The translations under genes and the position numbers were made by a program. A stretch of 64,000 nt of DNA from Capillimicrobium parvum (GTDB lineage: Bacteria > Actinomycetota > Thermoleophilia > Solirubrobacterales > Solirubrobacteraceae). Each line of letters opens with the position of its first letter. Positions within the stretch are counted from its first letter, which is position 1. Under the pieces are notes generated by a model. The model was not told the DNA's origin. It was given only the letters and a program-made list of their open reading frames with translations, and searched no databases. The stretch is from assembly GCF_021172045.1 (NCBI RefSeq), contig NZ_CP087164.1:4712001-4776000 (forward strand). Reading direction: 5' to 3'. Shown here one piece after another: positions 1-44,840 of this stretch.

Positions 1-687
1 TGCGGGCCGGGAGCCGTCCTGAGCCACTTCGCCGCCGGGGTGAAGTGGGGATACGTCGAGTGGGACGACCGGCTGCCCGAGGTGACCGTCATGGGTGACG
101 CGACACGGGTGCACCGTGGCATCCGCGTCCATCGCACGGCGGCGTTGGCGCCCCACGAGACGCTCCGGTTCGACGGCATCCCGATCACCTCGCCCCTGCG
201 GACGCTGCTCGACCTGGCGGCGGTCGTCGACGAGCAGACCCTGCGGCGCGCGGTGCGGCGCGCGCAGGGCCTGAGGCGCGTCACGGTCCGTCAGATCGCC
301 GAGCTGCTGCGCCGGTGCGGTCCTCGGCGCGGCGTGCGCCGGCTGGCGCGCATCATCGCCACCGGGCCGGCGCCGACCCGCAGCGAGCTGGAGAACGTGG
401 TGCTCGACCTGCTGATCGACGGCGGGTTCGCCCACCCCGACGTCAACCGCGCGCTGCGGCTCGACGGCCGCCGCGTCGTTCCCGACTTCCGCTGGCCCGC
501 CGAGCGCCTGGTGGTCGAGGCCGACGGCGCGGCCTGGCACGACAACCCGGTGGCTCGGCAGGAGGACGCCGAGCGCCAGGCCGTCCTCGAGGCCCACGGC
601 GAGCGTGTGCTCCGCGTGACGTGGAACCAGGCGGTCGCGCGCCCCGCGCAGACGCTCGCTCGGCTCCCGGGCGGCCGGCGTCCCGGA
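1..687 (+). CDS. DUF559/AbiEi-like endonuclease-domain protein, 5' truncated, native stop missing
   Basis: The frame is open from the first base and already encodes GPGAVLSH, a motif normally well inside these proteins, so the start lies outside the window. The AbiEi/HTH-like N-terminal part is followed by a DUF559 (Vsr-like) nuclease-fold part: VVPDFRWP, VVEADGAAWH and ERVLRVTW are the usual conserved blocks. DUF559 proteins normally stop shortly after the last block. Here the frame instead runs through a hairpin element and a G/C tract and does not stop until 1989, antisense to two real genes. I end the gene at the hairpin; the native stop has probably been lost. Family assignment is fairly sure. 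The function (nuclease or antitoxin-like) is unknown. Confidence 0.6.
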
Positions 688-689
688 TC

Positions 690-732
690 GAGCGTCGAGT
701 TCCTCAGCATGACGTTGAGGAAGTCGACGCTC
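690..732. repeat. Hairpin element copy 1 (17-bp arms, one G-G mismatch)
   Basis: Left arm 690-706 (GAGCGTCGAGTTCCTCA) and right arm 716-732 (TGAGGAAGTCGACGCTC) are inverted copies with a 9-nt loop. The only mismatch is G699 opposite G723. A second copy at 44691-44743 has the same core and the same G-G mismatch. Both copies are followed on the right by G-rich low-complexity DNA. It could be a REP-like extragenic palindrome or a terminator. Confidence 0.75.
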
Positions 733-735
733 GCC

Positions 736-915
736 GCGTGGGGCGCGGCCGCGTGGGGGCGCGACCGCGTGGGGCGCGGCCGCGCGGCGGGGCGGGGCGC
801 GGGCGCGCGGCGGGGCGGGGCGGGGCGGCCGCGCGGCGGGGCGGGGCGGGGCGGCCCGCGCGGCGGGGCGGGGCGGCCACGCGCGGCGGGCGGGCGGCGG
901 GGCGGAGCGGGGCGC
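736..915. repeat. G/C low-complexity tract with quadruplex potential
   Basis: This is almost pure G and C, built from imperfect repeats of GGGGCGGGGC and GCGCGGC. Several runs of three or four G separated by 1-7 nt fit the G-quadruplex pattern on the plus strand. It lies directly after the hairpin and runs up to the stop of the convergent acyltransferase gene. It is not credible as coding sequence: the encoded residues are only G, R, A and P. Confidence 0.7.
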
Positions 916-1744: not shown

Positions 1745-3205
1745 TTACCGCTGTTCCCAGCCGCGGGCGCGTTCGACCGCGCGTCCCCATCCTTCCAGGA
1801 GCGCGGCGCGCTCGGCGTCCTCCATGCGCGGCTCGAAGCGCGCCCGTTCGCGCCAGCCTCGCTGGACCGTGTCGAGCGTCCACATCCCCACCCCGACGCC
1901 GGCCAGGTACGCGGCGCCCAGCGCGGTCGTCTCGGCCACCTCCGGCACGAGCACCGGCACGCCGAGCAGGTCCGCCTGGAACTGCATGAGCCACCGGTTG
2001 GCGGTCGCGCCGCCGTCGGCCCTCAGCTCGCGCAGCGGATGCGCGCCGACTGCCTCCATCGCCCGCACCGCGTCGACGGTCTGGTACGCCATCGCCTCGA
2101 GCGCCGCCCGCGCCAGATGCGCGCGACCGGTCCCGCGCGTCAACCCGACGATCGTGCCGCGCGCATACGGATCCCAGTACGGCGAGCCGAGCCCGGTCAG
2201 GGCCGGCACGAAGTAGACGCCGTCGTTGGCGTCGAGCGACGCCGCGAGCAGCTCGGTCTCGCCTGCCGCCTCGATGATCCCGAGCCCGTCGCGCAGCCAC
2301 TGCACGCCCGCGCCGGTGACGAAGATCGACGCCTCGAGCGCGTACGTGACGTTGCCGGCGATCTGCCACGCGATCGTCGTCAGCAGCCCCGCGGGGGCCG
2401 GCGGCCGCCGCGATCCCGCGTTGAGCAGCACGAACGAGCCCGTCCCATACGTGTTCTTGCCCATCCCCGGCTCCAGGCAGGCCTGGCCGAACAGCGCCGC
2501 CTGCTGGTCGCCGGCGATCCCCGCCACGGGAACGCCGGCCGCCGTGCGCCCCACCTCGCCGGCGCTCGGCCGCACCGACGGCAGCGCCCGCGACGGCACC
2601 CCGAACAGCTCGCACAGGTCATCGTCCCACGCGCCGCGACGGATGTCGTAGAGCAGCGTCCGCGAGGCGTTGGACGCGTCGGTCACGAGCTCGCCCGTGA
2701 GCTTGAAGACGAGCCACGCGTCGATCGTGCCGAACATCGCCCGCCCCTCGCGCGCCCGCTGCGCCAGCCCGTCCACGTTGCGCAGGAGCCACTCGATCTT
2801 CGTGCCCGAGAAGTACGGATCCAGGACGAGCCCGGTGCGCTCGCGGACGAGCTGCTCGTAGCCGGCCTGGCGCAGCTCGTCGCAGCGCGCCGCGGTCCGC
2901 CGGTCCTGCCACACGAGCGCGCGGTGCAGCGGCTCGCCCGTGGACGGATCCCAGACGCAGACGGTCTCGCGCTGGTTGGTGATGCCGATCCCGTCGAGCT
3001 CGGCTTCCTCCAGACCCGCGTCCTCGAGCGCCTCGTCGGCGACGGCGCGCGTGACGTCCCAGATCTCCGCGGCGTCGTGCTCGACCCACCCCGGTCGCGG
3101 GAAGTGCTGGCCGAACTCGCGGTAGCCGCGGCCGATCAGCTCCCCTTCGGCATCGAAGACGAGACAGGTCGTCCCGGTCGTGCCCTGGTCGATCGCCAGC
3201 AGCAT
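1745..3205 (-). CDS. glpK: Glycerol kinase
   Basis: A 486-aa FGGY-family kinase that phosphorylates glycerol to glycerol 3-phosphate with ATP in the cytoplasm. The N-terminal phosphate-binding motif DQGTTG is at residues 6-11, TNQRET at 76-81 and GDQQAALFGQ at 232-241, where Asp233 is the expected catalytic base. Length is close to the usual 495-505. A GATACT -10 box lies 6 nt before the ATG (3212-3217), suggesting a leaderless transcript. The neighbouring acyltransferase is probably co-transcribed. Confidence 0.95.
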   Translation of the reverse strand: MLLAIDQGTTGTTCLVFDAEGELIGRGYREFGQHFPRPGWVEHDAAEIWDVTRAVADEALEDAGLEEAELDGIGITNQRETVCVWDPSTGEPLHRALVWQDRRTAARCDELRQAGYEQLVRERTGLVLDPYFSGTKIEWLLRNVDGLAQRAREGRAMFGTIDAWLVFKLTGELVTDASNASRTLLYDIRRGAWDDDLCELFGVPSRALPSVRPSAGEVGRTAAGVPVAGIAGDQQAALFGQACLEPGMGKNTYGTGSFVLLNAGSRRPPAPAGLLTTIAWQIAGNVTYALEASIFVTGAGVQWLRDGLGIIEAAGETELLAASLDANDGVYFVPALTGLGSPYWDPYARGTIVGLTRGTGRAHLARAALEAMAYQTVDAVRAMEAVGAHPLRELRADGGATANRWLMQFQADLLGVPVLVPEVAETTALGAAYLAGVGVGMWTLDTVQRGWRERARFEPRMEDAERAALLEGWGRAVERARGWEQR

Positions 3206-3211
3206 CGGCGA

Positions 3212-3217
3212 AGTATC
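3212..3217 (-). promoter_or_regulatory. -10 box of glpK (leaderless)
   Basis: On the minus strand GATACT stands 6 nt before the glpK ATG with no Shine-Dalgarno between, as expected for a leaderless mRNA. The rest of the 277-nt gap up to the glycosyltransferase holds no credible gene. Apart from the hairpin at 3432-3469 I see nothing else in it. Confidence 0.5.
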
Positions 3218-3431
3218 CCGGCCGGGGCCGCCCGGACGCTGGCTGTCCCGTCCAGCGCCCGGGCGATGTCGGCCCCAGCCGGTCCCTCACCGTCGCGGGC
3301 GGCGGTGGGTCAGGCCGCCGGCCGCTCCGCATGCACGACGCACCCCGGCCGGAGGAGGAGAGACCTGCCGGACGTCCGTTGCGGGTGCGGGTGCATGACC
3401 GCAAGCTACGGGCGCGCGGCCCCGCGCCCCA

Positions 3432-3469
3432 CCGACCGGCGGTCGGAACCGGCCTCGACCGCCGGTCGG
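3432..3469 (-). terminator. Perfect 14-bp inverted repeat after the glycosyltransferase gene
   Basis: Arms 3432-3445 and 3456-3469 are perfect inverted copies of CCGACCGGCGGTCG with a 10-nt loop. They start 13 nt past the stop of the minus-strand glycosyltransferase gene. No U-tract follows, so this is a candidate terminator or transcript-stabilising hairpin without the classic tail. Confidence 0.5.
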
Positions 3470-3482
3470 AAGCGGCCGCGCG

Positions 3483-4169
3483 TCAGCGCCGCGCCCACCA
3501 CGCGGCCAGCAGGTCGCGCAGCTGGCGGCCCCGATGCGCGAACCCGCGCCACGTCCGCCCGGTCGCCCGGTGCTCGAGCTCCAGCGGCACCTCGACGACC
3601 CGGAAGCCCGCGCGGGCCGCGTCGATCGTCATGCCGACCTCCATCCCGAACCCCGGCGCGAACGGCGTGACGCAGGCGAGCACCTCGCCGCGCATCGCCC
3701 GCTGGCCCGACAGCGGCGCCGCGAGCTCGAGCCCGGCGGCGCGCCGGATCGCCCACCGCGCCGCCCCGACCGCGAGCCCGAACCCGCCGCCCACCCGGCG
3801 GGCGAACACGGCGACCGCGAGGTCGCCCTCGCCGCGCGCGACCGCATCGAGCAGGCCGGCCAGCCGCGCGGCGCTCTGACCCAGGTCGGCGTCGCACAGC
3901 AGCACGAGCGGCGGATCGGGGGCCGCGGTGACGTCGAGCACCGCCTGCGCCGCGCGCGACGCCGCCGCGCCCTTGCCCGCCGACCGCGAGCTGCGCACCA
4001 CCTCGGCGCCGGCGTCGCGCGCCACCCGCGCCGTCGCATCCGTCGAGCCGTCGTCGGCCACCACCACGCGCGCGCCCGGAAAGGCCTCCCGCAGCGCCGC
4101 GAGCGTCGCCGGCAGGCGGTCGGCCTCGTCACGCGCGGCGATGAGGACGATGGGCGGTCGCGGCGGCAT
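3483..4169 (-). CDS. Family 2 glycosyltransferase
   Basis: I start at the ATG giving MPPRPPIVLIAARDE. The longer open frame upstream is antisense to the biotin carrier gene. The protein is 228 aa. The GT-A nucleotide-binding motifs are visible: VVVADDGSTD (Asp39, Asp40) and LLCDADLG (about 91-97, the DXD-type metal site). It resembles dolichyl-phosphate-mannose-synthase-like GT2 enzymes that use a nucleotide sugar. It has no membrane helix, so it is probably cytosolic or peripheral. Its acceptor is unknown. Confidence 0.85.
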   Translation of the reverse strand: MPPRPPIVLIAARDEADRLPATLAALREAFPGARVVVADDGSTDATARVARDAGAEVVRSSRSAGKGAAASRAAQAVLDVTAAPDPPLVLLCDADLGQSAARLAGLLDAVARGEGDLAVAVFARRVGGGFGLAVGAARWAIRRAAGLELAAPLSGQRAMRGEVLACVTPFAPGFGMEVGMTIDAARAGFRVVEVPLELEHRATGRTWRGFAHRGRQLRDLLAAWWARR

Positions 4170-43535: not shown

Positions 43536-44642
43536 ATGGGCCTGCTGGACTACTACCGGCAGTTCGAGGAGCAGCCGCCGGAGGAGGTCTCGGCCGAGCT
43601 GCGCGAGCGAGCGGCCGAGCGCCGCCGGCAGGCGCTGTCGCGCGTCGAGCCCCTCGACCTGTCGGCGCTCACATGGCCGGAGCTGCCGCCGTCGGTGGTC
43701 GTCAACGCGGTCACCTACGTCGCGCGGCGCGGGCTGCACCGCTATCGCGAGCCGCATGCCGCCGAGTTACGCTCCGAGCTCGCGCACCGGCTGGGCCTCC
43801 CGGCCACGCGCGTGGTCGTCGGCAACGGCGCGGCGCAGCTGCTCGGCTCTGCGGCCCAGGCGCTCATCGAGCCGGGCGACGAGCTCGTCACGCCGTGGCC
43901 CTCGTACCCGCTGCTGCCCGTGCTGGCGCGGCGGGCGGGCGGCTCGGCGGTGCCGGTCGGCGCCGCGTCGGGCCGGCCGGCGGAGGCGATCGTCGCCGCG
44001 CTGACCGACCGCACCCGGATCGTCGCCCTCTGCAACCCGAACGACCCGACCGGCGAGTGGCTCGACGAGGCGGCGCTGCGGGCGCTGCTGTCGGCGCTGC
44101 CCGAGCGCGTGGTCGTGCTGCTCGACGAGGCGCTCGTGGAGTACGCGCCGTCGAGCGCGGCCGGGCTCGTCGAGGAGTTCCCGCGGCTGCTCGTCTTCCG
44201 CTCGTTCTCGAAGGCGTGGGGGCTGGCCGGGCTGCGGATCGGCTACGCGGTCGGCGGGCCGGACAGCGAGCCGCTGCTCGAGCGCGTGGAGCCCGAGCTG
44301 GGCGTCAACGAGCTGGCGCAGGCGGGCGCCCTGGAGGCGCTGCGCGCAACGGATGCGCACATGGCGCGCCGCGTCGAGGCCGTGCGGATCGAGCGGGCGC
44401 GGCTCGCCGGCGAGCTGGAGGCGCTGGGCCTCTCCGTGGCGCCGAGCGAGGCGAACCTCCTGTGGCTGGGCGCCGACGGCTTCGATGGCGCGGGGCTCGC
44501 CCACGAGCTCGAGACCCGCGCGAAGATCCGCGTCGCCGAGGGCGGCCGGTTCGGCGACCCCGACCGCATTCGCGTGGCGGTGCAGGACGAGGCGGCCGGC
44601 GACCGCCTGCGCGACGCGCTCGCGGCGATCCTGCGCGGCTGA
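43536..44642 (+). CDS. HisC-like class I/II aminotransferase
   Basis: A 368-aa fold-type I PLP enzyme. NPNDPTG (residues 167-173), the PLP-binding lysine in FRSFSKAWGLAGLRIGY (about 224-240), and a final RIRVAVQ block match histidinol-phosphate aminotransferase and CobD relatives. The LLLDEAL segment holds the PLP-contact Asp. No his genes are nearby, so another amino-acid role is possible. The last 9 codons and the stop lie in a 36-bp tandem duplication that runs past the gene. Confidence 0.85.
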   Translation: MGLLDYYRQFEEQPPEEVSAELRERAAERRRQALSRVEPLDLSALTWPELPPSVVVNAVTYVARRGLHRYREPHAAELRSELAHRLGLPATRVVVGNGAAQLLGSAAQALIEPGDELVTPWPSYPLLPVLARRAGGSAVPVGAASGRPAEAIVAALTDRTRIVALCNPNDPTGEWLDEAALRALLSALPERVVVLLDEALVEYAPSSAAGLVEEFPRLLVFRSFSKAWGLAGLRIGYAVGGPDSEPLLERVEPELGVNELAQAGALEALRATDAHMARRVEAVRIERARLAGELEALGLSVAPSEANLLWLGADGFDGAGLAHELETRAKIRVAEGGRFGDPDRIRVAVQDEAAGDRLRDALAAILRG

Positions 44643-44687
44643 GCGCCGCCCGCGCTCGCGGCGATCCTGCGCGGCTGAGCGCCGCCC
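44616..44687. repeat. 36-bp tandem duplication across the aminotransferase stop
   Basis: 44616-44651 and 44652-44687 are identical 36-bp copies. The first contains the last codons and TGA of the aminotransferase gene; the second repeats them downstream. It lies directly against the hairpin element that starts at 44691. Confidence 0.93.
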
Positions 44688-44690
44688 GCA

Positions 44691-44743
44691 GCGCCGAGCG
44701 TCGAGTTTCTGCGCCGTGGGCTGAGAAAGTCGACGCTCGGCGC
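44691..44743. repeat. Hairpin element copy 2 (20-bp arms, same G-G mismatch)
   Basis: Left arm 44691-44710 and right arm 44724-44743 pair over 20 bp with one G-G mismatch, at the same place in the stem as in copy 1. The common core is GAGCGTCGAGTTYCT ... AGRAAGTCGACGCTC. The loop is 13 nt and unrelated to that of copy 1, so the stem itself is what is conserved. Confidence 0.75.
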
Positions 44744-44840
44744 GGGTGCGCGGGTGCGCGGGTGCGCGGGTGCGCGGGTGCGCCGGTGCGCGGGTGCGCC
44801 GGTGCGCGGGCCCGCGGGCGCGCGGGCGCGCGGGCGCGAT
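44744..44840. repeat. GGGTGCGC octamer array
   Basis: About ten imperfect copies of the 8-bp unit GGGTGCGC (variants CGGTGCGC, GGGCGCGC) follow the hairpin. It grades into GGGCGCGC repeats before AT-richer DNA. The rest of the gap up to the LuxR gene contains TTGAGA (44867-44872), 17 bp, CACGAT (44890-44895), a possible promoter. Confidence 0.85.

What the first reader, a model, noticed from the sequence alone, without database searches (positions are those of the whole stretch)
690..915. Dispersed hairpin with conserved G-G mismatch beside a G-rich tract (copy 1)
The stem GAGCGTCGAGTTYCT/AGRAAGTCGACGCTC occurs twice in the window, 44 kb apart. Both copies keep the same G-G mismatch, have different loops, sit at the 3' side of a plus-strand gene, and are followed by G/C-rich repetitive DNA. 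Conservation of the stem and mismatch but not the loop argues for selection on the structure, as in REP/RAYT-type palindromes. I know of no named element with this core.
Basis: partly seen in the sequence, partly recalled or inferred. Interest (0 to 1): 0.72.

Follow-up and report, generated by a model that had tools for sequence, protein, structure and literature searches.

The report
Nuclease gene bracketed by dispersed hairpins
A short DNA hairpin scattered through a soil bacterium's genome also brackets a gene for an uncharacterised DNA-cutting enzyme, and relatives of that enzyme in other bacteria are often bracketed by repeats of their own, which suggests an unrecognised kind of selfish DNA.

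Summary
The two copies are real. The element is a 51-nt hairpin (up to 22 bp plus a mid-stem mismatch position, 5-nt loop) with at least 37 copies in this 5.95-Mb Solirubrobacteraceae genome, mostly after gene ends. The G-G mismatch is common (18 of 37), not universal, but recurs in other genera whose stems differ. The genome has no detected RAYT.

The window copy is the right-hand member of a pair bracketing an AbiEi-HTH/DUF559 (Vsr-like) nuclease gene. A hairpin-only model run over 399 genomes found two copies in a genome of another family (G340); they bracket its one DUF559 match. Other DUF559 genes have repeats of their own: matching 5' and 3' flanks in 25 of 88 class genes (1 of 1,291 control comparisons), 12 of 41 in other Actinomycetota, 15 of 21 short-form genes elsewhere. 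In 7 of 8 families checked the bracketing repeat is also dispersed. The cassette is absent beside plsC in the relatives examined.

Best reading: DUF559 enzymes recognise and spread cognate hairpins, as RAYTs do REPs, through an unrelated nuclease. Association and presence/absence are shown; recognition, cutting and mobilisation are inferred.

The parts
1..684 (+). 3' part of an AbiEi-HTH + DUF559 (Vsr-like nuclease) gene; homology begins about 197 bases left of the window (genome 4711803). C-terminus unsure: the frame stays open through the hairpin.
   Evidence: profile match 4711803-4712684 (the gene is itself a row of the profile); Pfam AbiEi_4 2.3e-11, DUF559 1.6e-7; open frame
686..736 (+). 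hairpin copy 1 (core 690-732), right-hand bracket of the DUF559 gene; the outward-facing left bracket is at genome 4711751-4711801, about 200 bases left of the window
737..915 (+). G-rich low-complexity tract; comparable G-runs beside a minority of copies
   Evidence: sequence; 7 of 37 copies
44692..44742 (+). hairpin copy 2 (core 44696-44738), a solo copy 3' of an aminotransferase gene
   Evidence: Aminotran_1_2 9.1e-43
44743..44839 (+). G-rich tandem repeats (GCGCGGGT units) beside copy 2
   Evidence: sequence

Best explanation
The hairpin is a REP-like dispersed repeat whose partner enzyme is the DUF559 protein it brackets. The protein joins an AbiEi-type DNA-binding part to a Vsr/homing-endonuclease-like nuclease. 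Proposed working: the enzyme binds its cognate mismatched hairpin when it extrudes as a cruciform or on single-stranded DNA, cuts at or near its foot, and host repair copies the hairpin, or now and then the whole hairpin-gene-hairpin unit, into a new place. Copies persist mainly just after gene ends, where they do least harm and may act as transcript ends. Shown: hairpins, dispersal, bracketing by locus-specific copies, presence/absence at one site, predicted fold and invariant residues. Inferred: recognition, cutting, copying.
For: Bracketing: both sides in G000 and G005, 5' side in G008. Model R2, built from 55 hairpins and using no protein information (three of its four source genomes have a hairpin at a DUF559), found two places in G340, another family; they bracket its only DUF559 match at E 1e-20 or better, 2854-3738. 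It also found hairpins next to DUF559 matches in G003 (adjacent) and G013 (93 nt). Prediction 1: the different hairpin bracketing a DUF559 in G011 was modelled (R3): 22 places there, two of them bracketing a second DUF559; 0 in G000. Prediction 2: the repeat flanking a second DUF559 of G000 has 23 places in G000, 0 for the reversed pattern. Statistics: 25 of 88 genes have matching flanks above the 99.9th percentile of 7,656 cross-locus pairs, 1 of 1,291 control comparisons; 20 of the 25 have a hairpin of score 11 or more at an edge. Edge hairpins (score 12 or more): 28 of 90 at 5', 21 of 91 at 3', against 5 of 103 and 3 of 98 at plsC/glpK/MBL gene edges. Other Actinomycetota: 12 of 41 above the maximum of 1,640 cross pairs. 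Short DUF559 genes: 15 of 21. The S. meliloti bracket repeat has 30 full or partial places in its record. Presence/absence: 9 of 62 relatives' loci keep plsC near the MBL gene; no DUF559 match in any of the 62 stretches. Fold: pLDDT 93; Foldseek AbiEi 6y8q 1.8e-6, I-Bth0305I 1.5e-3, Vsr 1.1e-2; E195, D226, E237, D239, H244, D253 invariant in 63 sequences.
Against: Nothing here shows binding, cutting or movement. 63 of 88 class genes fail the matching-flank test, and 5 of the 25 that pass lack a hairpin of score 11 at either edge. G340 shows no copies beyond its bracket at this sensitivity. G063 and G162 hold many hairpins of this family, yet in the 2 of 2 and 8 of 11 DUF559 loci I fetched R2 finds no convincing copy at the gene (best E 0.012, about 360 nt away). 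G008 lacks the 3' copy and G001's 5' side is cut by a contig end. Bracket copies are direct about as often as inverted (12 and 14 of 26 listed, one inverted a tie), unlike ordinary transposon ends. No target-site duplication was evident by eye; it was not tested systematically. The gene tree within the clade is unresolved. One of the 12 out-of-class matches (L361) has no evident hairpin.
Confidence: 0.6

Rival explanations
1. Homing: the DUF559 nuclease cuts hairpin sites that lack the gene, and repair from a gene-bearing copy inserts hairpin-gene-hairpin there. The solo hairpins are targets rather than products, spread by other means.
For: The catalytic part resembles homing endonuclease I-Bth0305I. 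In L088, the relative with the closest plsC held, the same plsC-MBL gap holds a single hairpin without DUF559. Bracketing copies are often direct repeats.
Against: It does not explain how 20-40 solo hairpins arose. The L088 hairpin is of another family, resembling the one that brackets DUF559 L154. L090, L122, L127 and L130 show no such hairpin in the gap (by eye).
Confidence: 0.2
2. The hairpins are transcription terminators or mRNA-end stabilisers. DUF559 genes are passengers that carry them at both ends, and the repeats spread by another route.
For: The 37 copies lie outside genes predicted by a crude finder of mine, with none between divergent genes; stable RNA fold; REPs are known to lie mostly there (PMC3733652, section read).
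Against: Terminators need no genome-specific stem sequence, nor the same locus-specific sequence at both ends of one gene. No T-run follows. 5' copies end next to the start of the DUF559 match, where a terminator would silence the gene.
Confidence: 0.1
3. The hairpin is an operator: the AbiEi-type HTH binds it to regulate its own gene and others, and the nuclease part is a defence or repair activity.
For: AbiEi binds inverted repeats to regulate its own expression (PMC7319586, abstract in search listing). Many 5' hairpins begin about 40-55 nt before the protein match.
Against: Matching copies lie after the gene too, and solo copies lie at gene ends with none between divergent genes.
Confidence: 0.08

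Closest known systems
REP / RAYT (TnpA-REP) units, REPtrons
   Same: Dispersed imperfect palindromes at gene ends; an enzyme gene bracketed by cognate copies; a mid-stem mismatch, whose correction severely impairs activity in E. coli REP (PMC8266576, passages read).
   Different: No Y1 transposase found in the genome; no GTAG foot; brackets direct or inverted, whereas rayt genes are said to be always between inverted REPs (PMC2817692, passages read); unrelated enzyme fold.
CGTC-tagged REPs
   Same: Dispersed palindromes, mostly of Alphaproteobacteria, said to lack a dedicated transposase (PMC3733652, abstract and passages).
   Different: The hairpin's consensus foot is CRYC...GRYG, not an unpaired CGTC. 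Most palindromes at the alphaproteobacterial DUF559 genes looked at here are C-rich/G-rich; a CGTCATT stretch lies in a bracketing repeat only in Novosphingobium.
Vsr and I-Bth0305I-type nucleases (the name EDxHD is recalled)
   Same: Predicted fold of the C-terminal part and invariant acidic/His residues; Caulobacter VsrA carries DUF559 (PMC12907096, passage).
   Different: Fused to an AbiEi-type part; hairpin-bracketed; neighbours of the window gene are an acyltransferase and an MBL-fold gene.
AbiEi antitoxin (AbiE type IV toxin-antitoxin)
   Same: N-terminal AbiEi_4 in Pfam and structure 6y8q.
   Different: No AbiEii toxin as immediate neighbour of the window gene; nuclease domain added.

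Membership tests
REP/RAYT (GTAG class) | Y1 (PF01797) RAYT gene in the genome | tested here: not met
   0 matches in G000; 5 of 14 control genomes ring
REP/RAYT (GTAG class) | GTAG tetranucleotide at the foot | tested here: not met
   0 of 37 copies within 10 nt
REP/RAYT (GTAG class) | many dispersed intergenic imperfect palindromes | tested here: met
   37 places, all outside genes predicted by a crude finder that missed the DUF559 gene itself
REP/RAYT (GTAG class) | enzyme gene flanked by two inverted copies | tested here: inconclusive
   bracketing met, but of a DUF559 gene, and 12 of 26 listed brackets are direct
CGTC REP | unpaired CGTC at one end and CCA-type tail | tested here: not met
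   consensus foot CRYC...GRYG, pairing in part; CGTC or GACG within 10 nt in 9 of 37
IS200/IS605 | Y1 transposase between subterminal hairpins | tested here: not met
   no PF01797 match
Intrinsic terminator | GC-rich hairpin followed by a T-run | tested here: not met
   3' flanks of the 37 copies show no T-runs by eye and are G-rich on average
AbiE toxin-antitoxin | AbiEii nucleotidyltransferase partner gene adjacent | tested here: not met
   immediate neighbours of the window gene: Acyltransferase and Lactamase_B genes
Vsr/homing nuclease superfamily | fold and conserved residues | tested here: met
Vsr/homing nuclease superfamily | endonuclease activity | not testable with these tools
   needs purified protein

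The most novel reading that the evidence does not exclude
DUF559 proteins, with or without the AbiEi part, are a second, RAYT-independent class of palindrome-mobilising enzymes, spread over at least Actinomycetota, Pseudomonadota, Deinococcota and Cyanobacteriota; each drives its own family of mismatched hairpins. Part of the abundant palindromic repeats with no known mobiliser, such as rhizobial C-rich/G-rich palindromes, would be their non-autonomous copies.
Probability: 0.5. Interest if true: 0.92.

Novelty: new variant of a known kind. Interest (0 to 1): 0.83.

Why it matters
DUF559 genes are common: 90 of 146 genomes of the family have one or more full-length types at E 1e-40 or better, up to 14 in one genome, and 60 of 296 genomes drawn from the phylum at 1e-25. 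Their function is unknown. If they spread hairpins, this gives them a function and offers a candidate enzyme for palindromic repeats that have none (CGTC REPs were said to lack one). It would be a case of unrelated enzymes converging on mismatched hairpins, testable with one purified protein and two oligonucleotides.

Tried and rejected
RAYT/IS200 partner: no PF01797 in the genome. G-rich tract as part of the unit: 7 of 37 copies only. G-G mismatch as an invariant: rejected for the own genome (18 of 37), kept as recurrent across genomes. Known RNA family: only a tRNA in the window at Rfam gathering scores. Pattern GCGTCGA..TCGACGC for finding copies: too loose, 103 hits on each strand, mostly ordinary sequence. 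Clade-A DUF559 on plasmids: one weak Rhodococcus hit. CGTC motif at short-form DUF559 genes: within a bracketing repeat only in Novosphingobium L400. Gene tree for horizontal transfer: unresolved. Cross-locus control for the short-form set: not usable, since palindromes are shared between those loci; distal windows were used instead. In the second short-form batch the distal-window control is spoiled by a further repeat in the Neisseria locus, score 91. My gene finder missed the DUF559 gene at four settings, so the counts of convergent and tandem neighbours are rough. Literature, main-text library only: 'DUF559' with 'palindrom' gave 2 papers, judged unrelated from the listing. Further searches listed nothing linking DUF559 to palindromic repeats, but the listings were capped: 25 of 164 papers, 12 of 2,594, 15 of 105, 8 of 595, and 0 found. 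Most subscription journals and preprints are not held, so this does not prove novelty.

Full report
1. The observation. The full unit is 51 nt: a 4-nt foot that pairs in part, 9 bp, one mismatch position, 9 bp, 5-nt loop. It folds alone as DNA and RNA. A covariance model of 13 copies found 37 distinct places in the 5.95-Mb single-contig genome; three weaker places were dropped, and the tool scored 150 of 12,734 candidates, so this is a lower bound. All 37 lie outside genes predicted with a crude codon-composition finder of mine: 18 between convergent, 19 between tandem, 0 between divergent genes. The finder missed the DUF559 gene at every setting tried; with that gene put in by hand the counts are 17, 20 and 0.

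2. The mismatch. Position 14/38 is G-G in 18 of 37 own copies and G-C in 12. It is G-G in 12 of 13 copies of G005, 4 of 4 of G008 and 1 of 1 of G029, and by eye in several copies of G063 and G162 but not in the two of G340, although stems differ between these genomes by paired changes. On 55 copies, 76 cells show changes on both sides of a pair against 37 in shuffles (0 of 500; slid controls 10 to 33). Many edge hairpins of unrelated sequence at other DUF559 genes also show a mismatch about 10-13 pairs from the foot (read from the pairing strings, not a counted test).

3. Distribution. With the second model (R2, 55 copies from four genomes) 39 of 399 genomes of the class match, under strict filters with at most 14 candidates scored per genome. 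One genus mate, G003, then matches. The pattern is patchy.

4. The bracketed gene. The window starts inside an AbiEi-HTH/DUF559 gene (Pfam AbiEi_4 and DUF559). It lies between two outward-facing copies, genome 4711755 (-) and 4712690 (+), the only inverted pair within 1.2 kb among the 37. G005 has the same arrangement and G008 the 5' copy. In G340, of another family, the R2 search returned two hairpin places, in direct orientation; a separate protein search put that genome's one DUF559 match between them, 2 and 1 nt away. R2 hairpins also lie next to a DUF559 match in G003 and 93 nt from one in G013. G428's DUF559 has a hairpin 56 nt downstream and a matching one upstream in direct orientation, with further copies elsewhere in that genome.

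5. Generality within the class. I collected 93 distinct DUF559 genes. The 40 loci L288-L327 came from genomes in which a hairpin model had hit or that were followed up, and L198-L227 are the best matches per genome, so the sets are not random. Strong edge hairpins (score 12 or more): 28 of 90 at the 5' edge and 21 of 91 at the 3' edge, against 5 of 103 and 3 of 98 at edges of plsC, glpK and MBL genes of relatives, and 7 of 1,397 windows elsewhere in the same loci. Of 88 genes with both flanks, 25 have 5' and 3' flanks more alike than the 99.9th percentile of 7,656 cross-locus pairs: 11 of 27, 3 of 25, 10 of 34 and 1 of 2 in the four source sets, against 1 of 1,291 comparisons with distal windows. 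Of the 25, 20 have a hairpin of score 11 or more at an edge. The bracketing sequence differs from locus to locus and is much alike within a locus.

6. Two predictions tested. In G011 the hairpin bracketing one DUF559 was modelled; it occurs at 22 places in that single-contig genome, two of them bracketing a second DUF559 (4209712-4210566), and at none in G000. In G000 the repeat flanking the second DUF559 (3530100-3530969) occurs at 23 places, five of them clustered just upstream of that gene; the reversed pattern gives 0. So one genome can hold two DUF559 genes, each with its own dispersed repeat family. Families checked for dispersal and found dispersed: G000 (two), G005, G008, G011, G428 and S. 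meliloti, 7 of 8. G340 is the eighth, without dispersal at this sensitivity.

7. Other classes and phyla. Out-of-class Actinomycetota: 12 of 41 genes with both flanks exceed the largest of 1,640 cross-locus scores; one of these (L361) has no evident hairpin. Short DUF559 genes from named records: 10 of 15 with score 21 or more, against a maximum of 15 in 105 controls, and 5 of 6 in a second batch, with one control spoiled. These 21 were chosen by me from 40 listed of 45 matching records. Bracketed ones are from Sinorhizobium, Azospirillum, Sphingomonas, Sphingobium, Qipengyuania, Novosphingobium, Deinococcus, Picosynechococcus and Neisseria; three other Azospirillum loci, Shinella, Methylobacterium and Synechocystis were not. 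Some sit inside operons, such as sufB-sufC and a transhydrogenase operon. The S. meliloti bracketing repeat has 30 full or partial places in its own record.

8. Presence and absence. In relatives fetched with the neighbouring acyltransferase gene (called plsC here; Pfam Acyltransferase), 9 of 62 loci also hold the MBL-fold gene near it, and none of the 62 stretches holds a DUF559 match. In two of the nine another gene lies between: a DDE transposase in L088 and a 527-aa frame in L107. The cassette is therefore an insertion in G000 or a loss elsewhere; the breadth of absence favours insertion. L088, whose plsC is 86% identical, has in that gap one hairpin resembling the one that brackets DUF559 L154 of G002; its loop is split by the transposase gene. 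Insertion sequences landing in REPs are known (PMC1525189, title and abstract in a search listing).

9. The protein. AlphaFold2 on 63 sequences gives pLDDT 93. Foldseek finds the AbiEi antitoxin 6y8q (1.8e-6), the catalytic domain of homing endonuclease I-Bth0305I (1.5e-3) and Vsr (1.1e-2). E195, D226, E237, D239, H244 and D253 are invariant in all 63, as expected of a working nuclease. [quoted passage not shown]

10. Reading. The anatomy is that of a REPtron with the enzyme replaced. [quoted passage not shown] coli REP severely affect TnpA-REP activity (PMC8266576, passages). The same kind of feature recurs here beside an unrelated nuclease. It is not a member of the RAYT/REP family: no Y1 gene, no GTAG. 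That it works like one is inference. Homing into hairpin sites is the nearest rival and may be part of the same process. Against: 63 of 88 genes are not bracketed by this test; G063 and G162 hold many hairpins, but none was found convincingly at the 10 of 13 DUF559 loci of theirs that I fetched; brackets are direct about as often as inverted; no target duplication was evident.

Noticed in passing
window 44618-44689: Exact 36-bp tandem duplication of the 3' end of the aminotransferase gene and its stop, ending 6 nt before hairpin copy 2; possibly a trace of the insertion.
   Followed up: no
G000 1048147 and 1050269 (L048, L025): Two copies of one unusual hairpin variant, same orientation, 2.1 kb apart, bracketing a 661-aa reading frame with a signal-like N-terminus; possibly a mobilised cargo gene.
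   Followed up: partly
L088 2980-4660: A DDE transposase gene (DUF772, DDE_Tnp_1) sits in the loop of a DUF559-type hairpin between plsC and the MBL gene.
   Followed up: partly
L170 and L176: DUF559 directly upstream of an elongation factor P gene in two genera (Pfam-checked in L170 only); a 5' hairpin in one, the other cut by a contig end.
   Followed up: partly
L386, L401: DUF559 genes inside the suf and transhydrogenase operons of a Sphingomonas strain, flanked by palindromes.
   Followed up: partly
G063, G162: Many hairpins of the window family but no DUF559 bracketed by that hairpin in the 10 of 13 loci fetched; the cognate gene may be lost or unassembled.
   Followed up: partly
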